53,107 nucleotides of DNA from Candidatus Omnitrophota bacterium (lineage in GTDB: Bacteria; Omnitrophota; Gorgyraeia; Pluralincolimonadales; Pluralincolimonadaceae), in contig PLNR01000005.1 in NCBI GenBank assembly GCA_003141835.1, forward strand, positions 1-53,107. The letters run 5' to 3'. Position 1 is the first letter of the stretch. Every line of letters begins with the position of its first letter. A model generated the notes under the pieces. That model saw only the letters and a program-made list of their open reading frames with translations. It made no database searches and was not told the DNA's origin. Below, piece by piece: positions 37,258 through 51,227 of this stretch. The translations under genes and the position numbers were made by a program.

Positions 37258-40200
37258 ATGATAGTTAGGCGTAGGTCTAACAAGAAAAAGGGATTTTTTA
37301 ACGAGATAAGGGCGGGATATTTTCCCGCCCTTTTGCTTTTTGCGGCGGTATTTTCGCTGGTTGCCGTCAGCAATGAGGCCGTTGCGGGCGCCCTCGGCCT
37401 CGTATTAAATGGAGATTTTGAAGAAGGCAGCACGGGAGGATTAGGCACGATCACTAGCTGGAACAGCTGGGGCGGCAGCGGCTACCATCACAACGATTAT
37501 AACCATACGATCAGCGGTTCAAAGGCGGTAAAGATCTGGTGGGATGACTCCGGCATATGGCAGAATTTTGCCGTAAGCGCTAGTACGGATTATTACTTTA
37601 ATGCTTATTTTTATAATCTATCTACCGACCCCTTGCACATTTGGAAGGGGTACCTTAAAGTCGAGTGGTATTTATCAGATGGATCTACGAAGATCTCGGA
37701 AGATACGATAGGCTTGCTTTATCCGGATGGTACCGATCCTTATAATATTTGGAAAAATGTATCCGCAAAAATTACGTCACCGGCCACTGCCGCTTACGGC
37801 AGGCCGGTCTTTGGGGTAAAAGACTGGACCTCGGCCGGCCCTTCGGGGGCGGTAAGCTTAGATGATCTGTATGCCGGCACATCCGCTCCGTCGGGACCCA
37901 CTGTGGGAGGCACCGCCTACACCGATGACACTGAGGCTACACCAATAGCCAGCGCGCCCGTTAAAGTGATCGTCTACGACAGCTCGTTGTCCAGGACGTC
38001 CATTTTTACGGCCACAACAAACGGCAGCGGCGTCTATTCCGTGACCCTGCAAAGCGGAGAGCTCGGCGCCGGCGATATAATCTGCGCCTACCTCGACGGC
38101 AGCGATAAGGCTACCTCCGTCTATAGGTGCGGGGGCACAAGCAACGTATCCAACCTAAACCTTTATAAAAACAATGTCGTCGTGTTTAATAACGACACAA
38201 CCGACATGACAAACGATGACCTTTACAAGGTTGACGACGGTAATGCAAATATACTCTATTCCGTCTCCGCCGCCTCAAGCGGCAACCTCACCGTCGACAG
38301 CAATATCGAACTCTTCCTCGAAGGCTCGAGCTCTAAAACCTTCGCCCCGGGAGGCAGTGTGACCCTCCAGGGCACAGGGGCCTTGAAGATAGAGTCAGGG
38401 GCGACGTTGAGCATGGCAAGTTTTGCCCTCACAGTCCCGGATAACTTGACAAACGCAGGCACCATAACCCAAACATCTTCAGGCACTACGACCCTCACAG
38501 GCACAACCAAGACCGTAACAGGCGGCGGCTCGACAACGTTCTATAACCTGACAGTGTCGGGCACGTATACCTTAAGTACCAACATAAAGGCATCCAATAC
38601 CCTGACCATAGACGACAATAAATACCTGTCAGTAAATGCGTCAAGCGCCTCAGTGACGGTCGAGGTCGGGGGAAGCATAGTAAATAACGGGAACGCTGCC
38701 GGCGAAGGCATAGTCCTTGCGAATTCGACCAATTCGATAATAATAAAGGGCTCGGCAGGCGCCAAGAGGGCCCTTACCAACAATAACATCGACTTTAACG
38801 GTAAGACCGTCCACCTCGATAACATGGACGTCCAGGTGGCGACTAACCTAGGTGCGGCAGGCGACACCATAGTCCTCGACTCAGCCTGCGAGTTCGACGA
38901 TATGACGGTCAACCCCGGCACGCTTAATAACTCGGGAGGCTACGATTTAACGGTAAGCGGCAGCTGGGAGGTCTCCGGCACGGGGACTTTCACGCCGGGC
39001 ACAGGCACAGCCTCGGTGAGCTTAACCGGCACAGCCAAGAACATAACCACCACCTCCAGTAATTCCTGCGCCTTTTATAACCTGGTCGTCTCAGGCAGTT
39101 ATACCCTGCAATCGTCTATAGGGGTGGCCCATAATATGACGATCAGCAGTACGGGCACCCTGGATGCCTCTAATAAGACTATCACCCTGACGGGCAGCGC
39201 GGGCAATTTTGATGTTGAGGGTACCTTCACTTACGGCACTTCTACGGTTGTCATACAGGCAACAGGCGATATCCAGGGCGCAGCCAGCGGCGGTACTTTT
39301 AAAGCCGGATTTTATAATTTGACTATCGGTAAAGTGTCGGCGACCCCGACTGTAACAGTCACCGCCGGCGGCACGTGGGAAGGCATACAGGTTTATCATA
39401 CCCTGACCATACTATCGGGAGCCACTCTTACCGGCGTCGCCGACAGAAAAGTCCAGATGCTAAACGGCTCGACGGTAGTCAACAGCGGCACGTGCAACCC
39501 GGTAGAGTTCGAGTTTAACCTTGGCAGCAGCGCAGGCACCGCCACCATGGGCGGCGGCAGTTACACAGGCGACCACATCCAGATCGTCCAGGGCACAGTG
39601 ACCCTGGCCGGGGCCGTGACCGCCTCTTATGAGTGGAGAATAGGTTATTGGCAATCTAACTCGCCCGGTGTCCTTAACCTTAATGGTTATAATCTTACAT
39701 CCTCAGGAAGTATTATCCTCGGGCAACATACATTCGGGGACCAGGTAGGCCAGCTAACCACCGGTTCGGGAAGCATAACTGCGCTCAACCTTTTTGTAAA
39801 CGAGACGATAACCAGCGGCGGCGACCACTGTTCTATTACCGTGGGAAGCGGCAGTGTTTGCACTTTTTCAGGAGCAGTTTTGACCCACGCGAACGGCATC
39901 ATTACAAATAACGGTTCGATCATTTGCGGAAATTTCACTAACGAGAGCGGCGGTACCTATACCGCCAATACCGCAAGCTGTTCCATATCCTGCGCGGATT
40001 TCACCAATGACGGGACGTTTACCAACAGCCAGACCAATACCGTATCCGCCTCGGGAAATGTGGCAATAACCGCTTTCGGCGCCACAACCACCAAGAACAC
40101 CCTTACCATGACAGGCGACGGCAAATACATAAATTCCAGCGCGAATCTGGGCAATCTCGTCAATAACGGCGGTACCACCGGCAGCAGGAATTATATCCAT

Positions 40201-43200
40201 ACCAATAACCTGGTCCTCGACGGGACGTTTACAAACAACTCCGGGAAATATTTTACCACCCTTGACGACGACGCCTTGACCAGCAGGAACCTCACTACCG
40301 GCGCCGGCGGCGTAAACGGCACGATAAGTATAAACGGCCCTTTCTACGCGAACGCCTCGACGATAACCATTGACGACGCCGCAACAGGCAACTTCGATGT
40401 GAACGTACAGGCTAATTTTCAATGGGGCACTTCTCTCGTCGACCTTAAGGGCACGGGCTCGATAATCGGCCATAGCCACTACATAACTTTCAATAGTTTG
40501 ACCTGCGGCTATGCCGGCAAGACTACTTCGATCAACATGGGCGCCGACTGGATGGGCTTCGATATCCATGGGACGTTGACCGTCGGGACAGGCGTTCTCC
40601 AGCAAAGCATCGCTAATCAAAAGATTTTTGTATACGGCGCTACGATCGTAAACAGCGGCACAATTTACGTGACGGAGCTTTGGTTCGACTTAGCCGCCCC
40701 CACCATCATGAATGGCGGGGATCTATCGACCACCCAGATATTTATTGCCAACGGCGCCACATTGACCCTTACCGGGAACGTGACCCATTCCGGAAATTGG
40801 CAGACAGGCCATCAGGGCCAGAATACGACTAACGTCCTTAACGTCAACCAGTACAATATTGTAAGTTCGGGATGGTTCGACGCGGGAGAATGGAACCTGA
40901 CCGAATTTGCATGCGTAGGCCAGGTGAACGTTACGACAGGCAACATCACGGTAGGATTGGATATGCATGTATATCCCAGAAAAAACGGCTCTGATGTCTC
41001 TTCCATTAATTTAGGAAGCGGCACTCACAGCATCGGGCTTGAACTTGGTATTGTAACGAGCGGCACCGTCCCTGAATCCACCGCAAATGGCGTGCTCACT
41101 CTTTCAAGCGCCACAACCACCGTAGGGGGGAATTTTAAGAACCTGGGGACTTCCGCCCAGGTCATCGCCAACGGCGGCACGCTCATATTTAACGACAATA
41201 CCAGGACCTCTACCATATACGGAAGCAGCTCATTTTATAACCTGACCTGCGCGACCGCGGGCAAGACATTGCTTTTTAATGTGGAAACGGGCCTTAATAA
41301 TTACATCACGACCGTCACCCGCAACCTGAATTTTTCCGGCAGCTCGGGTACAGGCAACAAGATCACTCTGGGCCGTTCGGACGGAAGCGGTTCACAGCAA
41401 TGGGCCATATATCCGGCGGGTTCTAAGGGCGCCTCGCCCGGTTGGACGGTTGCGTACGTGGATGTGTCGAATTCCGTAAACCTCAATAGCAATTATATCA
41501 ATCCCGATAATTCCAACGACGGCGGGAATAACAGCAACTGGTTTTCTCCGACCCTGGTCAAATTATCGGCTTTTTACGCCATCGGTTATTTTGACAAGGT
41601 GGGGGTATATTGGAAGACGGCCTCGGAATACAATAACGCGGGTTTTAATGTTTACGTAAGCGAGAATCCCGGCGGCCCGTATAAGAAGCTGAATCCCGCG
41701 TTGATCGCCGGCCTGGGCACATCCACTACCGGAGGGGAATATTCATATACCGATACCGGCATAATAAACAAAAGGACTTATTATTATAAACTGGAGGACG
41801 TGGAATTAAGCGGCCGCTCAAAGATGCACGGGCCGGTAGCGGCCCATCCGGGCCTGGATTCGGACGGCGACGGTATGACTGACGATTGGGAGACCTATTA
41901 CGGGCTTGACCCGCATAATCCCAACGACGCCTTGCTTGACCCGGACGGCGACGGGCTCACTAATTTAGATGAATTTTTGAAGGGTACGGACCCGACACAA
42001 AAAGATGAAGAGGCGCAGGAGGGAGTGCGCATAATCAGTTCGGACGAAACAGGCATAACCCTGGAGCTCGTAACCTCAGAATTTAAAGCGACTCCTAAAA
42101 AAATAGACAAAGTCACATACCAGGTCCTTAAGATCCCCGGATATGAGCACGGGTATACCGACGAACCGGGAAAGCCCCAAATGCCGCTCAAGCCGGTCCT
42201 CTTGGGTATCCCGCAAGACGTATCCTGCGCTATTGCGGACCTGGACCTTGATGTGACCGAGCTGTCCGGATACAATATCTATCCTGTCAGGAGTTCCCGC
42301 CTTGTAGACGACCTAAGGAAAACAATGGCCGGAAAAGAAGACCTGAAAGCGGAAAAACCAGTGTTCAAAAAGATAGAATCACATCTCGTAATAGACGAGA
42401 AATTTTATTCCACGGATACTTATTATCCTGCCGATATAGTCAGCCTCGGGTTTGTGGGAGATATGAGAGGCCAAAGAACGGCTTGCGTGGACATCTCCCC
42501 GCTGGTTTTCAACCCGGCCCAGCACAGCTTAAAATTTTATAAAAGGATAAAGTTCAAATTGCAATTTAAGAGTGCCGAAGCCGGTCCTCCGATAGGGCCG
42601 CCCCCGTCTTCGCCGAGCCTGGATGCCAAGATAAAGATATACACAACGAAAGAAGGATTGTGCCGGATAGGATGGGACGCGCTTTGGAATGCCAAATTTT
42701 ATGATGCCATCTGGCTGGATCCGCGCAAGATAAGGCTTTATAACAAGGGCCAGGAAGTGGCAATACGCATCGCCGGGGAAGAGGACGGGAGGTTCAATAG
42801 CGACGACTACATCGAATTTTACGCCCAGGCCAATAATTCAAAATATTCAACGGAGAACGTCTATTGGCTCACCTACACCCAGGGAAAAGGCCTGAGGATG
42901 GAGAATATTCCCAGTAGCCCCGGTGTCCCGGTCGCGGTCCCGGACAGGTATAGGGCGAAAGTGCACCTCGAGAAGAACGATTTTTACTGGGGTGAGCGCG
43001 AAGGCCCCGAAGATATCGACCGCTGGTTCTGGAGCAGCTACATCTGGGGAGGTACCGAGGTCAATTACCCTATAGGCCTTAAGGATGTAAACCCCCTCCA
43101 TCCGGGAGACGAAGCGAGAGTGAAGATCGCCTATTATGCCCTGTTTGACGTCGACCATCATACGTTGTCCCGCCTGAATGGCGGGACCGTCAATGATGCG

Positions 43201-44922
43201 TCATGGACGGGCCAATGTGAGCATGTGGCGGAGGTGAGCGTGCCGCAGAACGTTCTCGCCGAGGGGGGTAATACCATAACCCTGGCGGCGCAACTTGCCC
43301 CGGGGACAGAATATGACTTGCTTGTGCCCAATTATTTTGAGGTGGAGTACTGGCGGAATTTCGTCGCGTCCGACAATGCCCTGGATTTTTCTTACAGGCC
43401 GGTTGGCGGCGGAGTGACAGAATTTAATATATCCGGGTTTACGAAAGATAATGTCGAATTATTTGATATAACCGAACCGGCCAGGGCCAGGTACGTTACC
43501 GGGTCCGAGACCGTATTCCAACCGAACGGTTCATATTCGCTGGTATTTAAATACGATTTTAAACCGGATGAAGGGAAGAGGTTCCTCGCCTTGACCCCGG
43601 ATAAAGCGGATCCGGCCGGGCGCTTAAAGATCTACGCGCCTTCGGGCCTCTCTTCACCGGAAAACAAGGCCGATTATATAATGATCTCGTACGGGGCCTT
43701 TAAAGACAACCTCTACCCCCTTAAGAGATTGTATGAAAGGAAGGGGCTAAGCGTCAGCGTGGTCGACGTAGAGGATGTATACGATGAGTTTAATTACGGC
43801 CTAATGAGCCCCTATGCGATAAAGGATTTTTTAAGGTACGCCTATAATACATGGCAGCGCCCGGCGCCTACATACGTGCTTCTGGTCGGAGACGCAAATT
43901 ACGATTACAGGGATAACCTGGGTTCCGGAAAAATAAACTACGTCCCCGCTTATCTTTTGCCCAACACGCCGTATCTGGGCGAGACCGCTTCGGACAACTG
44001 GTTCGTATGCTTGGACCCTCCCCAGCTTATCGCCGGTCAGGTCCAGGATGATGTATTGCCGGATATGTTCATCGGCAGGATCCCCGCGAGCGGGAAGGAT
44101 GAGGTCGATAACGTGGTCAAAAAGATCATAGATTATACCTCCCTGCCTTACAGGTATCAGAGCAAAAAAGTCACTTTTGCGGCAGATGACGAGGCTATCT
44201 TTGAACAGACCTCTGATAACCTGGTGCAATACCTGCCCGGGAACATGATCCCGTCGAAATTATATCTTTCCGGCTATACGGATTATTCGCGGTTTACCCG
44301 GGACCTGATAAACGAGATCAATAGCGGCACGGTCTTGCTGAATTACGCAGGACACGGCTCGACCAACCTTTGGACCGAGGAGGAATTATTTAATACGGGC
44401 ACGGTCGGCCTGTTAAATAATTACCGCAAGTATCCCTTTGTCGTCTCCTTCGATTGCCTGGACGGTTATTTCCTTGACCCGGACGACGGGTTTAGGTCTA
44501 TGGCCGAGGTGTTTTTAAATAAAAAAGATGCCGGCGCGATCGCCTGTTTTTCTCCTACGGGCATGGGAATGCCGGAAGGGCAGCAAGCCTTAAGCGAAGA
44601 ATTATTTAAGTCGATCTTTGTGGACGGTAATTACAGGCTCGGCCCGGCCACGACCCGGGCGAAGATCAACTTTTATTCCAGGATGGGAGGGCAGTATAAG
44701 GACCTGATAGAGACGCAGACTCTCTTCGGAGACCCGGCCTTGTCTTTAAAGACGGGAGTAAAAGAGGAGAAGAAGTGGCGGAAGAAATCATTGGGCCGGC
44801 AGCCCCTGGCGGTTTCCTCAGACGATGATTTTAAGGACATCCTCCAGCAGCTTATGCAAAACGCCAAAGATAGCGGGAAATGGGGCAACGGTTTTAAAAG
44901 ATCCAGAAGGCCGGAAGACTAG
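37258..44922 (+). CDS. giant multidomain surface protein: CBM4_9-like domain, beta-strand repeat region, TSP3/EF-hand-like Ca repeats, C-terminal C25 (gingipain-like) peptidase
   Basis: LVLNGDFEEG... ; repeated FYNLTVSGTYTL-type units; DSDGDGMTDDWETYYGLDPHNPND; YVLLVGDANYDYRDN, NYAGHGSTNLW, VVSFDCLDGYF. Confidence 0.88.
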   Translation: MIVRRRSNKKKGFFNEIRAGYFPALLLFAAVFSLVAVSNEAVAGALGLVLNGDFEEGSTGGLGTITSWNSWGGSGYHHNDYNHTISGSKAVKIWWDDSGIWQNFAVSASTDYYFNAYFYNLSTDPLHIWKGYLKVEWYLSDGSTKISEDTIGLLYPDGTDPYNIWKNVSAKITSPATAAYGRPVFGVKDWTSAGPSGAVSLDDLYAGTSAPSGPTVGGTAYTDDTEATPIASAPVKVIVYDSSLSRTSIFTATTNGSGVYSVTLQSGELGAGDIICAYLDGSDKATSVYRCGGTSNVSNLNLYKNNVVVFNNDTTDMTNDDLYKVDDGNANILYSVSAASSGNLTVDSNIELFLEGSSSKTFAPGGSVTLQGTGALKIESGATLSMASFALTVPDNLTNAGTITQTSSGTTTLTGTTKTVTGGGSTTFYNLTVSGTYTLSTNIKASNTLTIDDNKYLSVNASSASVTVEVGGSIVNNGNAAGEGIVLANSTNSIIIKGSAGAKRALTNNNIDFNGKTVHLDNMDVQVATNLGAAGDTIVLDSACEFDDMTVNPGTLNNSGGYDLTVSGSWEVSGTGTFTPGTGTASVSLTGTAKNITTTSSNSCAFYNLVVSGSYTLQSSIGVAHNMTISSTGTLDASNKTITLTGSAGNFDVEGTFTYGTSTVVIQATGDIQGAASGGTFKAGFYNLTIGKVSATPTVTVTAGGTWEGIQVYHTLTILSGATLTGVADRKVQMLNGSTVVNSGTCNPVEFEFNLGSSAGTATMGGGSYTGDHIQIVQGTVTLAGAVTASYEWRIGYWQSNSPGVLNLNGYNLTSSGSIILGQHTFGDQVGQLTTGSGSITALNLFVNETITSGGDHCSITVGSGSVCTFSGAVLTHANGIITNNGSIICGNFTNESGGTYTANTASCSISCADFTNDGTFTNSQTNTVSASGNVAITAFGATTTKNTLTMTGDGKYINSSANLGNLVNNGGTTGSRNYIHTNNLVLDGTFTNNSGKYFTTLDDDALTSRNLTTGAGGVNGTISINGPFYANASTITIDDAATGNFDVNVQANFQWGTSLVDLKGTGSIIGHSHYITFNSLTCGYAGKTTSINMGADWMGFDIHGTLTVGTGVLQQSIANQKIFVYGATIVNSGTIYVTELWFDLAAPTIMNGGDLSTTQIFIANGATLTLTGNVTHSGNWQTGHQGQNTTNVLNVNQYNIVSSGWFDAGEWNLTEFACVGQVNVTTGNITVGLDMHVYPRKNGSDVSSINLGSGTHSIGLELGIVTSGTVPESTANGVLTLSSATTTVGGNFKNLGTSAQVIANGGTLIFNDNTRTSTIYGSSSFYNLTCATAGKTLLFNVETGLNNYITTVTRNLNFSGSSGTGNKITLGRSDGSGSQQWAIYPAGSKGASPGWTVAYVDVSNSVNLNSNYINPDNSNDGGNNSNWFSPTLVKLSAFYAIGYFDKVGVYWKTASEYNNAGFNVYVSENPGGPYKKLNPALIAGLGTSTTGGEYSYTDTGIINKRTYYYKLEDVELSGRSKMHGPVAAHPGLDSDGDGMTDDWETYYGLDPHNPNDALLDPDGDGLTNLDEFLKGTDPTQKDEEAQEGVRIISSDETGITLELVTSEFKATPKKIDKVTYQVLKIPGYEHGYTDEPGKPQMPLKPVLLGIPQDVSCAIADLDLDVTELSGYNIYPVRSSRLVDDLRKTMAGKEDLKAEKPVFKKIESHLVIDEKFYSTDTYYPADIVSLGFVGDMRGQRTACVDISPLVFNPAQHSLKFYKRIKFKLQFKSAEAGPPIGPPPSSPSLDAKIKIYTTKEGLCRIGWDALWNAKFYDAIWLDPRKIRLYNKGQEVAIRIAGEEDGRFNSDDYIEFYAQANNSKYSTENVYWLTYTQGKGLRMENIPSSPGVPVAVPDRYRAKVHLEKNDFYWGEREGPEDIDRWFWSSYIWGGTEVNYPIGLKDVNPLHPGDEARVKIAYYALFDVDHHTLSRLNGGTVNDASWTGQCEHVAEVSVPQNVLAEGGNTITLAAQLAPGTEYDLLVPNYFEVEYWRNFVASDNALDFSYRPVGGGVTEFNISGFTKDNVELFDITEPARARYVTGSETVFQPNGSYSLVFKYDFKPDEGKRFLALTPDKADPAGRLKIYAPSGLSSPENKADYIMISYGAFKDNLYPLKRLYERKGLSVSVVDVEDVYDEFNYGLMSPYAIKDFLRYAYNTWQRPAPTYVLLVGDANYDYRDNLGSGKINYVPAYLLPNTPYLGETASDNWFVCLDPPQLIAGQVQDDVLPDMFIGRIPASGKDEVDNVVKKIIDYTSLPYRYQSKKVTFAADDEAIFEQTSDNLVQYLPGNMIPSKLYLSGYTDYSRFTRDLINEINSGTVLLNYAGHGSTNLWTEEELFNTGTVGLLNNYRKYPFVVSFDCLDGYFLDPDDGFRSMAEVFLNKKDAGAIACFSPTGMGMPEGQQALSEELFKSIFVDGNYRLGPATTRAKINFYSRMGGQYKDLIETQTLFGDPALSLKTGVKEEKKWRKKSLGRQPLAVSSDDDFKDILQQLMQNAKDSGKWGNGFKRSRRPED

Positions 44923-44939: not shown

Positions 44940-45782
44940 ATGAAAAGAGAGCTTAAAATAGAGGTCGCTAACCATGTCGTGGGCCTCAACATCGATGAAG
45001 AGCGCCACCCGTCTTTTATAAAAGACGTCCTTGGGGCGTATAATATGTTCATTTCCGGCGCTGAGCCGACGATCTCCGTCGATGTAGAGTTAACCGGCGA
45101 TGCGCCTCCGGAATACTTCCCTTCTTCAAGGCTCATTTTTGAAAATAACACTATTGCCATAGAAGATGACTGTCTTTTAGGCAGTTTAGACCTGAAAAAA
45201 AAGCGCGGCCGGATAAAATTAAATCCCGTAAATCCCCTGTATCCGCTGGGCACATTCCTGAGGAATGTTTATACGTTTTTGGTGGTACTGGAAGACAAAG
45301 GGGTAGCCCTGCACGCAGTTGGCGTATTGGAAGAGGAAGAGGCGCATGTATTTATCGGTCCGTCAACCGCGGGCAAGTCCACCGTGGCGAGCCTCTCCCC
45401 GGGCAAAGTCATCCTGAGCGACGACCTGATACTTGCCAAAAAAGTTAACGGAGAATTTAAAGTTTTTCCTACCCCGGCCTGGGGCGACAGGCAAACAGGG
45501 CCGAGGCGGAACAGGCCTTACCGGATAAAGAATTTGTTTAAATTAATAAAAGACAAGACGGTGTACCTGGAAAAATTCTCGCCCGCGTATGCCTTGGCGA
45601 ATATATTTACCGTACCCCATATACCGGCTGAATTGATCCCAGAGGACGAGTTGCTGACTACATTTTCAGAACTTTTATCCGCTGTGCCGTGTTATGGGAT
45701 GCATTTCCTGCCGGAGCCGTCGTTCTGGCGGCATATCGAAGGGCTTAAACCTGAAATAGAGTTCTCAAAGAGAGAGAGTTGA
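44940..45782 (+). CDS. HPr-kinase-like P-loop protein
   Basis: VALHAVGVLEEEEAHVFIGPSTAGKSTVASLSPGKVILSDDLILAKK. Confidence 0.8.
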   Translation: MKRELKIEVANHVVGLNIDEERHPSFIKDVLGAYNMFISGAEPTISVDVELTGDAPPEYFPSSRLIFENNTIAIEDDCLLGSLDLKKKRGRIKLNPVNPLYPLGTFLRNVYTFLVVLEDKGVALHAVGVLEEEEAHVFIGPSTAGKSTVASLSPGKVILSDDLILAKKVNGEFKVFPTPAWGDRQTGPRRNRPYRIKNLFKLIKDKTVYLEKFSPAYALANIFTVPHIPAELIPEDELLTTFSELLSAVPCYGMHFLPEPSFWRHIEGLKPEIEFSKRES

Positions 45783-45784
45783 CC

Positions 45785-46060
45785 ATGGATATGAAGACCA
45801 GGATACCGGCCAGGTCCGGCAAGACCGCTTCAAGGGTCATAGACGGGGAAGCCGTTATAGTCCTTTTGGATAAACAGGAGACCATTGTCTTGAGCGACGT
45901 CGGTTCGCGCATATGGGAGATCATGGACGGCAAGAAGGATATAGGCGAGATCAGCGGCGCGATCATATCGGAATTCGACGCCACGCATGAAGAGGCATTG
46001 AAAGACATTACCGAGTTCGTGGAGGATATGGTACAGAGAGGGGCGGTGGAGGTCAAATAA
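45785..46060 (+). CDS. PqqD-family peptide chaperone
   Basis: AVIVLLDKQETIVLSDVGSRIWEIMDGKKDIGEISGAIISEFDATHEEALKDITEFVEDMVQRGAVE. Confidence 0.85.
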   Translation: MDMKTRIPARSGKTASRVIDGEAVIVLLDKQETIVLSDVGSRIWEIMDGKKDIGEISGAIISEFDATHEEALKDITEFVEDMVQRGAVEVK

Positions 46061-46061
46061 G

Positions 46062-47114
46062 ATGAGAGAAGCCGATAAGGGCCGGGACCAGTATTTAAGG
46101 ATATACCGCAAGACGATGGATAATTCTATCTGCTTCCTTGCCCATTGGGAATTGACCTATAAATGCAACTTGGGATGCAGGCATTGTTACGCCGCCGGAA
46201 GGAAAGACGGTAAGGAATTTTCTTACGAAGAGGCGAGGCCTATCATAGACGAACTCAGGGATATGGGCTGCCTCTATCTCATCTTCAGCGGGGGCGAGAT
46301 CTTGATGAGGGATGATTTTTTCGATATCGCGTCGTATGCGAGAGGGCAGGGTTTCGCGCTGCGGCTGATGACGAACGCCACCCTGATCGACGAAGCTGTC
46401 AGCGAGAAGATAGCGTCTCTCTACCCTTTAGCGGTCGAGACGAGCATATATGCCGCTGATAAGGACCTTCACGATGCCATCACTTCTTCCGCGGGTTCTT
46501 TCGATAAGACGATAAAAGCTGCGAGGCTCCTCAAGGAAAGGAACGTAAGGGTCATCTTTAAATTCCTTATCATGAATGACAATATCGGAGAGTTCAGGGC
46601 CGTAAGATCATTAGCGGGAGAGATCGGCGCGGATTTTGTATTCGATTTTTGCGTCGTAGGCAAAAATGACGGCTCTAAGGCCCCATTAAGATACAGGCTC
46701 GATAAGGAGAAGATCAAAGATTTTTTTATATCGAACGATCTCCCTCTGGGAAAAAAGGAAGCCGATGACGAGGATCTTCTTTGTATCGCGGGCCTTAATA
46801 ATATTTTCATTACGCCCCATCTCGATGTTTATCCCTGTATCGGGCTGGACGTGAAATTAGGCAACCTCCGCGAAGGGAGCCTCAAGGATATATGGCGTTC
46901 CTCGGAGGAATTGAATTTTGTAAGAAACATAAACCTGCCCGACTTGCCGAAGTGCAAAAGCTGCGGCCTCGCTCAATTTTGTTTTAGATGCTCGGGAATA
47001 GCGCTTTCCGAAGATAACGATATTTTAGGGCCGTCGAATTTCGACTGTTCGGTCGCCGCAGCGGTAAGTGAAATTGCGGCGGAAAAAGAGGAGTTGATAA
47101 ACAATGGAAAATAG
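46062..47114 (+). CDS. radical SAM/SPASM protein
   Basis: CNLGCRHCYAAGR cluster motif; SPASM cysteines CIGLDVKLGNLREGSLKDIW...CKSCGLAQFCFRCSG. Confidence 0.93.
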   Translation: MREADKGRDQYLRIYRKTMDNSICFLAHWELTYKCNLGCRHCYAAGRKDGKEFSYEEARPIIDELRDMGCLYLIFSGGEILMRDDFFDIASYARGQGFALRLMTNATLIDEAVSEKIASLYPLAVETSIYAADKDLHDAITSSAGSFDKTIKAARLLKERNVRVIFKFLIMNDNIGEFRAVRSLAGEIGADFVFDFCVVGKNDGSKAPLRYRLDKEKIKDFFISNDLPLGKKEADDEDLLCIAGLNNIFITPHLDVYPCIGLDVKLGNLREGSLKDIWRSSEELNFVRNINLPDLPKCKSCGLAQFCFRCSGIALSEDNDILGPSNFDCSVAAAVSEIAAEKEELINNGK

Positions 47115-47262
47115 CCCGCGTAAAGACAAGAAAAGGCCGTACCGCAAACCGGCCGTCATTTTTTCCAAAAAGATAGAGGTGATATCCACGGTTTGTAATA
47201 CATCCAGGGGAGGCGAAAGCGGTTGCAGGAAAGCAATCCCTTGTTTTCGCCTTCTTTCATAA
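47104..47262 (+). CDS. putative RiPP precursor peptide, 52 aa (not in supplied ORF track)
   Basis: MENSPRKDKKRPYRKPAVIFSKKIEVISTVCNTSRGGESGCRKAIPCFRLLS*; ATG overlaps radical SAM stop; three C-terminal Cys. Confidence 0.65.
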   Translation: MENSPRKDKKRPYRKPAVIFSKKIEVISTVCNTSRGGESGCRKAIPCFRLLS

Positions 47263-47280: not shown

Positions 47281-47784
47281 ATGACGGAAGCAACGGCGCG
47301 CGTACGGGAATCGTTCTCTATCATGCGTGAGGCCATGATACGAGGGGGGTCTGCGATGAGGCTGCGCGCTAAGGGAGACAGCATGGGCCCGCTGATAAAA
47401 GAAGGGGACGTCATAGTCATAAGGCCCAGCACGTTTGACGAGATTGGGATCGGCGATATAGCCGTGTTTGGCGTCAGGGGTAAGCTGTGCGCCCACAGGC
47501 TTATAATGAAACGCGCCAAGGGCAACCGGCATGTCTTTGTTACGAAATCAGACAGGACTTTTACGGCCGACGCGCCTTTCGGGCATAAAAATTTATTCGG
47601 CAAGATATCCCATATCCAAAAAAACGCGCTGACGTTAAACCTCGAATCGTCCTTTTGGGTGCCGCTCAACCGCGTCCTGGGCTTATATCATTTAATACTG
47701 TGCCAGGCTGCCGTCCGTCTTCGCCTTCTTTACGCTGTATTTAAAAAAGGCGATGCTCAACGGGATGAGCAACGCGGAGAATAG
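47281..47784 (+). CDS. S26-like signal peptidase family protein
   Basis: MRLRAKGDSMGPLIKEGDVIVIRP...IGDIAVFGVRGKLCAHRLIMK. Confidence 0.8.
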   Translation: MTEATARVRESFSIMREAMIRGGSAMRLRAKGDSMGPLIKEGDVIVIRPSTFDEIGIGDIAVFGVRGKLCAHRLIMKRAKGNRHVFVTKSDRTFTADAPFGHKNLFGKISHIQKNALTLNLESSFWVPLNRVLGLYHLILCQAAVRLRLLYAVFKKGDAQRDEQRGE

Positions 47785-48498
47785 CAGCAAAAACCCCGCC
47801 TCTTTGGCGAGTTGCGCTAAAGAATAGCCTTTATAGACCGATAATTCCATGGCCCGGATAGCGTAAGTGATGGGAAAAAATTTCGCCAGGAATTGAAGCC
47901 ACCCCGGCAATACGGTAATGGGGAAATATACCCCGCCTATCAAACCCTCGACGCTGTTTATTATCCAACCCAAAGGATTCCCGCGCTTGAAGACCATAAT
48001 AAAACCTGCGGATATTATCCCTAAACCGCTGAAAGACGCGACTGTCAAAAACAGGATCACAATAGCGGATAATATATTTATGTGGGTAAAGTCTATTTTA
48101 AACAGGAAGATCCCCAATGCGATATAGATGGCCATATCCATGGTCGCGAAGATCAGGTTCCACAAGGCCATAGAGAGTAATATGGCCGGTATCCCGGCGG
48201 GGGTCAGGAGTATCGCTTCCAGGGTCCCCTGCGCTTGTTCGGACTGTATCCGGCTTGAAAAAGAACCCAACCCGATGCCGACATAGCTGAAAAACGCCAT
48301 ACCCAGCAGGACATAGGAAAAATAATTCACGCCGAATTCTTCCAAATGGCTGACCAGCATCCGGCCGAATAATTTATCGATAAAGAAATAACCCAGCAGG
48401 CTTATCAGTACCCCGAAGATATTGGCGAGAAAAGCCAGTTTATAACTGGACTCGATAAGGAAGTCTTTCTTTATGAAGGCCAGCGGTATTTTGCACAT
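47692..48498 (-). CDS. ABC-2 type transporter permease
   Basis: Six-TM; EQAQGTLEAILLTPAG; paired with ATPase. Confidence 0.88.
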   Translation of the reverse strand: MCKIPLAFIKKDFLIESSYKLAFLANIFGVLISLLGYFFIDKLFGRMLVSHLEEFGVNYFSYVLLGMAFFSYVGIGLGSFSSRIQSEQAQGTLEAILLTPAGIPAILLSMALWNLIFATMDMAIYIALGIFLFKIDFTHINILSAIVILFLTVASFSGLGIISAGFIMVFKRGNPLGWIINSVEGLIGGVYFPITVLPGWLQFLAKFFPITYAIRAMELSVYKGYSLAQLAKEAGFLLLFSALLIPLSIAFFKYSVKKAKTDGSLAQY

Positions 48499-48499
48499 C

Positions 48500-49282
48500 C
48501 TATGACCCCGCAGTCAGCTTCACGAATACCTCGCCAAGCGTAGCGGTCGGACCGCCCACTTGCTTGCGTAATTCTTCCAATGTCCCGAATGCGCGGAGCC
48601 TTCCTTTATCCAGGACCATGAACAGGTCGCAGAAATCCAGGGCTTCGTCCATATGGTGGGTGGCAATTATTGCGGTTTTATTCCGCGCCTTCACTAAAGT
48701 TTCTTTGATGAATCCCCTTAAGCTCAAAGCGGCGGCGTAATCGAGGCTTTTTGTCGGCTCATCCAGTAACAGGAGTTCCGGGTCGTGAAGCAGCCCCCTC
48801 ATCAACGCAAAACGCCTCTTCATGCCCGTCGAGTAGGAATCGAACCTTTTACCCGCGTAATCGACCGCAAATAATTCCGACAGCTCGCCTATCCTGGCCC
48901 CGGCGGTTTTCCTGTCGAGCCCGTAGAGGGCGGCAAAGAATTCCAGGTTTTGCCTGCCCGTGAGGCGCCAATAGAAACTCCTTTCTTCCTCGGCCACCAA
49001 TCCGATGGACATCTTTATCTTCTCTTCAAGGCCGGAGCCGTTTAATAAGACAGAGCCCCTGTCAGGCAAAAGGAGCGTAGCGATTATCTTTAAAAGGGTG
49101 GTCTTGCCCGCCCCGTTCGGCCCCAGCACGGCAAGTATCTTCCCCCTCTCGAGGCGGAAGGAAACATCATCGAGCGCCCTGACCGGTATCCCGCGCCCGA
49201 GATCGAATTTGATCAATTTTCCGAAAGAGAGGGGAGGGGTAAAATCCTTGGTTAGCCCGTCTACTTCTAATATAGGTCTCAT
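48500..49282 (-). CDS. ABC transporter ATP-binding protein
   Basis: LGPNGAGKTTLLKI, YSTGMKRRFALMRGLLHDPELLLLDEPTKSLD. Confidence 0.95.
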   Translation of the reverse strand: MRPILEVDGLTKDFTPPLSFGKLIKFDLGRGIPVRALDDVSFRLERGKILAVLGPNGAGKTTLLKIIATLLLPDRGSVLLNGSGLEEKIKMSIGLVAEEERSFYWRLTGRQNLEFFAALYGLDRKTAGARIGELSELFAVDYAGKRFDSYSTGMKRRFALMRGLLHDPELLLLDEPTKSLDYAAALSLRGFIKETLVKARNKTAIIATHHMDEALDFCDLFMVLDKGRLRAFGTLEELRKQVGGPTATLGEVFVKLTAGS

Positions 49283-50177: not shown

Positions 50178-51227
50178 ATGGTTTTAGATGAATTAGCAAA
50201 AAGGGCGCATGAGGAAGGACTCAGCGCCCTTTTGTATTACGGCATTAAAGATACAAGCCTTTTAGGCTTGTTACCGCCCGAATTTATTTCAGGATTGGCC
50301 CGCCATTATTACAATAACGCCTCTTTCAACCTGTTCGCCCAAAAGAAATTAGGCGAAGTTCTGGCCGCTTTTGAAACGGCCGGGATCGACGCTATAGTCT
50401 TAAAAGGCCTCTCGCTGATGGATACGGTATATCCAAATATAGCCGTACGCCCCATAACCGATATAGACCTTTTGATCAAAGAAAGCGATCTTCCGCGCGC
50501 GAAAAATAAGTTGAACGAATTAGGATACGCTTGCGAAGAATATTGCCGGGAGGATTTCTATAACGGCGAAATAGCCATCGACATCCATTCGAGCCTGTTA
50601 AATTCGGTCAGGGTGAAGAGCCGGCATAAAACCTGCGAGGTCGATAACGCCGAGTTATGGAGGGATTCCGGTTCCATGATTTTGGACGGGAGAAAGGCCA
50701 GGGTCCTCTCGCCCGAGGACCAGTTGATCTCGCTCTGCCTGCACTTGTTCTATCACCACGGCCTGAAAAGGCTGATCTGGTTCGTGGATATTTACGCGTT
50801 GTTAAATACGCATGAAAATGTATTTGATTGGGCCAGGTTCCTGGACAAATGCCGCAGGTTTAAGGTCAAAAGCCCAGTTTACTATTGTCTTTCGGCTGCC
50901 GAAATAAAACTCGGGACCCTTGTCCCGCGGGAAGTTTTGGAAAGGTTAAAACCGCCGGCCGAGAACATCTTGACGAGGAAGATCCTGGATCTGGCGATGC
51001 ATAAAGATATATCCGAGAAGGTAAGGTTCTATTTTATCCTGTTATCTTTGGAAAAGCTTAAGGATAAGCTTTTGTACTTATTCGAGATCATACTGCCGCG
51101 CCCAAGCGTTTTGAGGGCCGTTTACCTGCCCGGGTATTCGCTTCCGCGCCTTTACTTCTTTCACTTTAAAGCGATTTTCGTCGAATCTTCCAAAGCGGTA
51201 GGTTCGCTGCTTGACACCTCTCCATAG
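50178..51227 (+). CDS. nucleotidyltransferase family protein (NTP_transf_5-like)
   Basis: GIDAIVLKGLSLMDTVYPNIAVRPITDIDLLIKESDLPRA; DIHSSLL; LCLHLFYHHGLKRLIWFVDIYALL. Confidence 0.85.
   Translation: MVLDELAKRAHEEGLSALLYYGIKDTSLLGLLPPEFISGLARHYYNNASFNLFAQKKLGEVLAAFETAGIDAIVLKGLSLMDTVYPNIAVRPITDIDLLIKESDLPRAKNKLNELGYACEEYCREDFYNGEIAIDIHSSLLNSVRVKSRHKTCEVDNAELWRDSGSMILDGRKARVLSPEDQLISLCLHLFYHHGLKRLIWFVDIYALLNTHENVFDWARFLDKCRRFKVKSPVYYCLSAAEIKLGTLVPREVLERLKPPAENILTRKILDLAMHKDISEKVRFYFILLSLEKLKDKLLYLFEIILPRPSVLRAVYLPGYSLPRLYFFHFKAIFVESSKAVGSLLDTSP

What the first reader, a model, noticed from the sequence alone, without database searches (positions are those of the whole stretch)
47104..47262. 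Overlooked 52-aa RiPP-precursor-like ORF overlapping the radical SAM stop codon
MENSPRKDKKRPYRKPAVIFSKKIEVISTVCNTSRGGESGCRKAIPCFRLLS is below usual ORF cutoffs, starts 11 nt inside the end of the rSAM gene (translational coupling), and has a charged leader-like N-terminus (KKRPYRKPAVIFSKKIE) followed by a Cys/Ser/Thr/Gly-rich tail with three Cys. From memory, P-Y-x-K-P-x-I-x-x-S-x-K-I-E-like leaders with C-terminal Cys occur in small peptides near PqqD/rSAM genes; I could not verify this.
Basis: partly seen in the sequence, partly recalled or inferred. Interest (0 to 1): 0.8.

Follow-up and report, generated by a model that had tools for sequence, protein, structure and literature searches.

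The report
Precursor of a radical-SAM phosphopeptide
A tiny gene that standard gene calling can miss encodes the raw peptide that a neighbouring set of enzymes most likely cuts, cross-links, phosphorylates and exports; the same unnamed peptide family, with the same enzyme set, occurs in dozens of uncultivated bacteria from several phyla.

Summary
The 52-aa ORF is real and very probably a RiPP precursor. It is kept full length behind the same radical SAM gene in two relatives (83% and 77% identity, dN/dS at most 0.35). All five genomes of a 384-genome phylum sample that hold the orthologous rSAM hold the peptide. Related peptides follow related rSAMs in Omnitrophota, Chloroflexi, Acidobacteria and others. 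No Pfam or NCBIfam model matches them.

The cassette has an HprK/PEPCK-fold kinase, a PqqD recognition domain, rSAM/SPASM, the precursor, an archaeal-type signal peptidase (conserved Ser/His/Asp), a nucleotidyltransferase and an ABC-2 exporter. This is the enzyme set of the Bacillota 'linear polyphosphorylated peptides' (LPP, described May 2026), plus an rSAM. The leader has LPP spacing. The residue that LPP phosphorylates (position 18) is a Cys in 35 of 37 peptides here, and 39 of 55 peptides end in Ser (7% background).

Best reading: PqqD-guided rSAM modification at Cys, kinase action on the C-terminal Ser, cleavage after Ser28, export. Leader binding, cleavage and kinase fold rest on homology; the chemistry is inferred. 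New variant of a known kind.

The parts
47104..47262 (+). precursor peptide gene, 52 aa (whole ORF with stop)
47087..47093 (+). ribosome-binding site AGAGGAG inside the end of the rSAM gene
   Evidence: sequence; GGAG-type stretches at the same place in L002, L003 and L017
47140..47151 (+). YRKP: YxxP motif expected to bind the PqqD domain
   Evidence: Tyr and Pro invariant in A3; role of the motif from PMC13381572
47104..47187 (+). predicted leader (residues 1-28), cut after Ser28 (small residues at -3 and -1)
   Evidence: position statistics of 37 peptides; geometry of LppA in PMC13381572; cleavage not shown
47188..47259 (+). predicted core TVCNTSRGGESGCRKAIPCFRLLS, Cys at core positions 3, 13, 19, C-terminal Ser
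   Evidence: inference
46062..47114 (+). radical SAM/SPASM enzyme (CxxxCxxC plus seven SPASM Cys invariant in six orthologues)
45785..46060 (+). PqqD-family RiPP recognition element; best solved relative is LppB (9x8z)
44940..45782 (+). HprK/PEPCK-fold P-loop kinase
47281..47784 (+). S24/S26 archaeal-type signal-peptidase-like protease, Ser34/His72/Asp97 conserved; predicted leader peptidase
47692..48498 (-). ABC-2 permease, convergent with the protease gene, recurs in many cassettes
48500..49282 (-). ABC transporter ATPase
50178..51227 (+). NTP_transf_5 nucleotidyltransferase; fused to the protease in other cassettes; only copy in the genome
37258..44922 (+). giant secreted protein with Propeptide_C25 and Peptidase_C25 domains; recurrent neighbour of the I-VC peptide subtype; only C25 in the genome
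49334..50176 (+). polysaccharide export (Wza-type) protein, context

Best explanation
47104-47262 is the precursor gene of a RiPP pathway. The peptide is translated in a coupled way with the rSAM enzyme. PqqD (45785-46060) binds the YRKP leader motif (inferred from the closest solved relative, LppB bound to its leader). The rSAM/SPASM enzyme modifies the core, most likely at the near-invariant Cys31 and the downstream Cys residues through a thioether (chemistry inferred). The HprK/PEPCK-fold kinase phosphorylates a Ser, most likely the C-terminal Ser52, as lasso-peptide kinases do (inferred). The nucleotidyltransferase may extend that phosphate (inferred). The signal-peptidase-like protease removes the leader after Ser28 with help from PqqD (by analogy with LppS/LppB), and the ABC-2 pair exports the product (inferred). 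The role of the product is not known; the neighbours point to the cell surface (exopolysaccharide export, secreted C25 protease).
For: Conserved ORF under purifying selection. Peptide present behind all five orthologous rSAMs in 384 genomes. Homologous peptides next to related rSAMs in several phyla. The rSAM tree and the peptide subtype agree: 5 changes for five labels, 29 on shuffles. The window's PqqD is the only one in the genome, its best PDB match is LppB, and LppB's Tyr-anchoring Asp70 and pocket Phe74 correspond to Asp74 and Phe78. Protease with Ser/His/Asp spacing close to LppS (38 and 25 residues against 39 and 25), conserved across cassettes. The kinase model (pLDDT 90.7) matches PEPCK first and HprK/P next. 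Leader spacing equals the LPP motif. Terminal Ser in 39 of 55 peptides against 7% of module ORFs. Protease-nucleotidyltransferase gene fusions parallel the B2-nucleotidyltransferase fusions of lasso clusters (PMC8498205).
Against: No expression, mass spectrometry or in vitro data. Six of 37 type-I peptides lack a terminal Ser (four Thr, one Ala, one Gly), and the LPP kinase did not accept Thr in place of its Ser. The protease is absent from the stretch examined in some type-I loci. The link between the protease and a terminal Ser is not significant once the tree is considered. The target residue of the rSAM is unknown. The Ser statistic is not corrected for shared ancestry.
Confidence: 0.82

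Rival explanations
1. The peptide is a RiPP precursor, but the modification is a sactipeptide- or ranthipeptide-type thioether only; the kinase and nucleotidyltransferase act on something else, such as a sugar or lipid for the adjoining exopolysaccharide.
For: The best PDB match of the rSAM profile is the sactisynthase SkfB. Exopolysaccharide genes adjoin the cassette here and in many relatives. NTP_transf_5 is not specific to RiPPs (general knowledge).
Against: Kinase, PqqD, rSAM and peptide stay together in dozens of loci with shuffled order. In L148 the kinase is fused to the leader-peptidase-type protease, and in about ten loci the nucleotidyltransferase is. The terminal Ser is conserved while the rest of the core varies.
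Confidence: 0.25
2. PQQ- or mycofactocin-like redox cofactor: the peptide is cut down to a small modified amino-acid product.
For: PqqD plus rSAM/SPASM plus a small peptide is the layout of PQQ and mycofactocin clusters. The rSAM scores against mycofactocin and PqqE models.
Against: All scores lie far below the cut-offs (128 against 265, 93 against 381 bits). The core varies in length and sequence. No other PQQ or mycofactocin gene was found in the cassette, while an exporter and a kinase are present.
Confidence: 0.06
3. A lasso peptide with an extra rSAM enzyme.
For: YxxP leader, discrete PqqD, HprK-like kinase and nucleotidyltransferase are features of some lasso clusters. The genome holds several Asn-synthetase-like genes, two of them about 20 kb beyond the window.
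Against: No B2-type Transglut_core3 peptidase anywhere in the genome. No cyclase among the window's cassette genes. Asn-synthetase-like genes are ordinary in polysaccharide loci (general knowledge).
Confidence: 0.04
4. The ORF is a conserved but non-coding overlap and the similarity reflects something else.
For: It is short and overlaps the rSAM gene.
Against: The overlap is only 11 nt. Third-position bias, low dN/dS and protein-level conservation across phyla.
Confidence: 0.02

Closest known systems
Linear polyphosphorylated peptides (LPP; lppA-K-B-S-D-N of Paenibacillus alginolyticus, PMC13381572, 2026)
   Same: Discrete PqqD-type RRE, HprK-like kinase, archaeal-type signal peptidase as leader peptidase, NTP transferase, exporter, YxxP leader with equal spacing, location in polysaccharide loci.
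   Different: An rSAM/SPASM enzyme is present here and the words radical SAM do not occur in the LPP paper. Position 18 is Cys instead of the phosphorylated Ser3. Conserved terminal Ser. ABC-2 pair instead of an MsbA-like exporter. Outside Bacillota, to which the paper says LPP is restricted.
Paeninodin / pseudomycoidin-type lasso peptides (PMC8498205)
   Same: HprK-like kinase acting on a C-terminal Ser, nucleotidyltransferase (sometimes fused to the leader peptidase), discrete RRE.
   Different: No B2 peptidase in the genome, no cyclase in the cassette, rSAM present, different leader peptidase.
SynChlorMet cassette (NCBIfam TIGR04248-TIGR04251: ScmD, ScmC, ScmE, ScmF)
   Same: Kinase-like ScmC, PqqD-like ScmD, rSAM/SPASM proteins.
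   Different: All scores far below the curated cut-offs (ScmC 20.8/125, ScmD 38.6/100, ScmE 79.5/400, ScmF 70.7/400 bits).
Sactipeptides / ranthipeptides (SkfB and similar)
   Same: rSAM/SPASM enzyme and a Cys-containing small precursor; SkfB is the best PDB match.
   Different: No model of either class reaches its cut-off; the linkage was not tested.

Membership tests
RiPP pathway (general) | Genetically encoded precursor with conserved leader and variable core next to modifying enzymes | tested here: met
RiPP pathway (general) | Precursor is actually modified and cleaved | not testable with these tools
   needs expression and mass spectrometry
LPP | SpI-like leader peptidase with Ser/His/Asp | tested here: met
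   triad spacing compared
LPP | Discrete RRE and HprK-like kinase in the cluster | tested here: met
LPP | NTP transferase in the cluster | tested here: met
   2.4 kb beyond the protease gene; the two are adjacent or fused in other cassettes
LPP | Leader motif YxxPxVLxHQxIxFETxxS with Ser at position 18 | tested here: not met
   Y0, P3, V5, I11 and a small residue at 15 agree, but position 18 is Cys and HQ/FET are absent
LPP | MsbA-like exporter | tested here: not met
   ABC-2 permease and ATPase instead
Lasso peptide | B2 (Transglut_core3) leader peptidase | tested here: not met
   none in the genome
Lasso peptide | Asn-synthetase-like cyclase in the cluster | tested here: not met
   none in the window's cassette; homologues elsewhere in the genome
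SynChlorMet | Curated scores of ScmC, ScmD, ScmE, ScmF | tested here: not met
PQQ | PqqE and PqqD above curated scores | tested here: not met
   93.2 of 381 and 34.8 of 46 bits
Sactipeptide/ranthipeptide | Cys thioether to an alpha, beta or gamma carbon | not testable with these tools
   needs MS/MS or NMR
Curated precursor families (Pfam-A, NCBIfam) | Any model matching the peptides | tested here: not met
   no credible match for 21 peptides

The most novel reading that the evidence does not exclude
A widespread, unnamed RiPP class in which a radical SAM crosslink at a core Cys is combined with HprK-type phosphorylation (and perhaps nucleotidyl or sugar transfer) at the C-terminal Ser, released by a signal-peptidase-type enzyme and tied to a secreted C25 (PorU/gingipain-like) protease at the cell surface.
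Probability: 0.42. Interest if true: 0.78.

Novelty: new variant of a known kind. Interest (0 to 1): 0.64.

Why it matters
It gives an enzyme set found in dozens of uncultivated bacteria its missing substrate. It extends LPP-like phosphopeptide RiPPs, reported in 2026 as restricted to Bacillota, to Omnitrophota, Chloroflexi and other phyla with an added radical SAM step. It predicts exact residues to test: Cys31, Ser52, the cut after Ser28, and Tyr13/Pro16 binding to PqqD. Peptide subtypes track the rSAM tree, so subtype-specific chemistry can be compared.

Tried and rejected
Pfam and NCBIfam for the peptide: nothing credible. PQQ, mycofactocin and SynChlorMet membership: scores far below cut-offs. 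Lasso peptide: no B2 peptidase, although Asn-synthetase homologues exist elsewhere. Link between terminal Ser and presence of the protease: Fisher p 0.059, and independent pairs on the tree give no support. Link between small -3/-1 residues and the protease: p 0.051, in a count where the motif anchor was misplaced in a few peptides (placement corrected, where the link was not retested). Weak peptide hits (G018, G044 and others) and hits with E above 0.001 showed no cassette in the comparison and were set aside as chance. Literature on an rSAM plus HprK pathway: none found in the open library; subscription journals are not covered.

Full report
Observation. The ORF lies exactly where stated: ATG 47104, stop 47260-47262, 52 aa, overlapping the rSAM stop by 11 nt, with AGAGGAG 10 nt upstream. 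The single codon between the upstream stop and the ATG leaves one start.

Is it a gene? In the same family, G008 and G004 carry the full peptide at 83% and 77% identity, with the same ends, behind rSAMs of 82% and 79% identity. dN/dS by Nei-Gojobori is 0.14-0.35 overall, lower in the leader (0.04-0.25) than in the core (0.24-0.34). The numbers are small (52 codons, three sequences). In a 384-genome sample of the phylum, a profile of the rSAM gives five genomes at E 1e-167 or better and then a gap to 1e-105. All five have the peptide. The cassette is patchy: a 95%-complete genome of the same genus (G002) lacks both genes.

How far does the family reach? A scan of one genome per species with the six rSAMs returned 80 loci. 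Iterated profile search of small ORFs found homologous peptides in Omnitrophota, Chloroflexi (Anaerolineae, Caldilineae), Acidobacteria, Thermodesulfobacteriota, a Thermodesulfovibrionia MAG, Planctomycetota and unclassified bacteria, usually just behind the rSAM gene. Flanks of the more distant Omnitrophota rSAMs show the same layout with sister peptide types in most but not all loci. I call them I-VC (window type), I-CC (Cys-Cys), LxxCK and FF-AC. On a quick tree of 56 rSAMs the five peptide labels need 5 changes (least possible 4, shuffled mean 29), so enzyme and peptide type go together. Several deep branches of that tree are weak. None of 21 peptides credibly matches Pfam or NCBIfam.

The enzymes. 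Upstream of the rSAM are a PqqD-family protein (54 bits, PF05402) and a P-loop protein that Pfam misses. Its AlphaFold model from 33 homologues (pLDDT 90.7) matches PEPCK first and HprK/P next. That is the HprK/PEPCK kinase superfamily; kinase activity is inferred. Downstream are an S24/S26 protease closest in the PDB to SEC11 of the signal peptidase complex, with conserved Ser34, His72 and Asp97, a convergent ABC-2 pair, a polysaccharide export gene and an NTP_transf_5 gene. The protease and the nucleotidyltransferase are one ORF in about ten other cassettes, and kinase and protease in L148. PqqD, NTP_transf_5 and C25 each occur once in the genome, all within this 14-kb stretch. The rSAM has the CxxxCxxC motif and seven SPASM Cys, all invariant in the six orthologues.

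What it works like. Popov et al. (PMC13381572, May 2026) describe LPPs in Bacillota: an SpI-like leader peptidase, discrete RRE, HprK-like kinase, NTP transferase and exporter, with leader YxxPxVLxHQxIxFETxxS and polyphosphorylation on core Ser3. The window's PqqD hits the crystal structure of their RRE (LppB, 9x8z) first in the whole PDB. Reading the alignment with the contacts named in the paper, LppB Asp70 (holds the leader Tyr) is Asp74 here and Phe74 is Phe78. In 37 type-I peptides (set defined by YxxP and Glu at position 12), counted from the Tyr: position 5 is I/V/L in 36, 11 is I/L/F/M/V in 36, 13 is A/V/T/S in 35, 15 is A/S in 34, 18 is Cys in 35. LPP has Tyr0, Pro3, Val5, Ile11, Thr15 (last leader residue) and Ser18. 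So the phosphorylated Ser of LPP sits where this family has a Cys, and the small residues at 13 and 15 fit a signal-peptidase cut after position 15 (Ser28 in the window). This is a comparison of spacing, not a statistical test of common descent.

The terminal Ser. 39 of 55 peptides end in Ser and 6 in Thr, against 7% Ser for 433 module ORFs (binomial p 2e-32, not corrected for ancestry). Lasso kinases of the paeninodin type phosphorylate a C-terminal Ser with little regard for the rest, and a nucleotidyltransferase adds hexoses to that phosphate in pseudomycoidin (PMC8498205). I therefore place the kinase target at Ser52. The FF-AC type, which lacks the terminal Ser, also lacks the protease nearby but keeps a kinase and nucleotidyltransferase; a general protease-Ser link did not hold up.

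The C25 neighbour. A secreted protein with Propeptide_C25 and Peptidase_C25 domains flanks the cassette in 16 of 25 I-VC loci and 2 of 30 others (Fisher p 7e-6, ancestry not corrected). Its catalytic domain is closest in the PDB to PorU and then to gingipains. It may trim the exported peptide or be its partner; nothing here decides this.

Verdict. That the ORF is a RiPP precursor is well supported. Leader binding by PqqD and cleavage by the protease are supported by homology to a characterised system. The rSAM product, the phosphorylation site, the nucleotidyltransferase step and the biological role are inference. It is not a member of LPP as defined (Ser18 and the exporter differ) nor a lasso peptide, but it works like an LPP with an added radical SAM step.

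Noticed in passing
window 37258-44922: Giant 2554-aa secreted protein with C25 protease and propeptide domains, PorU/gingipain-like, recurrent neighbour of this cassette in Chloroflexi and Omnitrophota; only C25 in the genome.
   Followed up: partly
window 47692-47784: The protease gene and the ABC-2 permease gene overlap tail to tail by 93 nt on opposite strands; the overlap is kept in L002 and L003.
   Followed up: no
L182 5992-11370: Several rSAM genes in tandem with one peptide and a PqqD gene.
   Followed up: no
L146, L153, L156, L158, L176: FF-AC peptide subtype without terminal Ser and without the signal-peptidase-like gene nearby, but with kinase and nucleotidyltransferase; possibly a different processing route.
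   Followed up: partly
L148 from 4447 (+): One ORF holds both the kinase and the signal-peptidase-like domain.
   Followed up: no
G008 (L193) and G004 (L192) against the window: The cassette is more similar to that of another genus (G008) than to that of the same genus (G004), and absent from G002; suggests transfer or loss.
   Followed up: no
L053 4861-10953: A Nitrospirae contig with two rSAM cassettes and three peptides, one with a long Gly/Gln repeat core.
   Followed up: no
G000:C1:72246-80018: Asn-synthetase-like genes about 20 kb beyond the window; probably polysaccharide-related, context not read.
   Followed up: no
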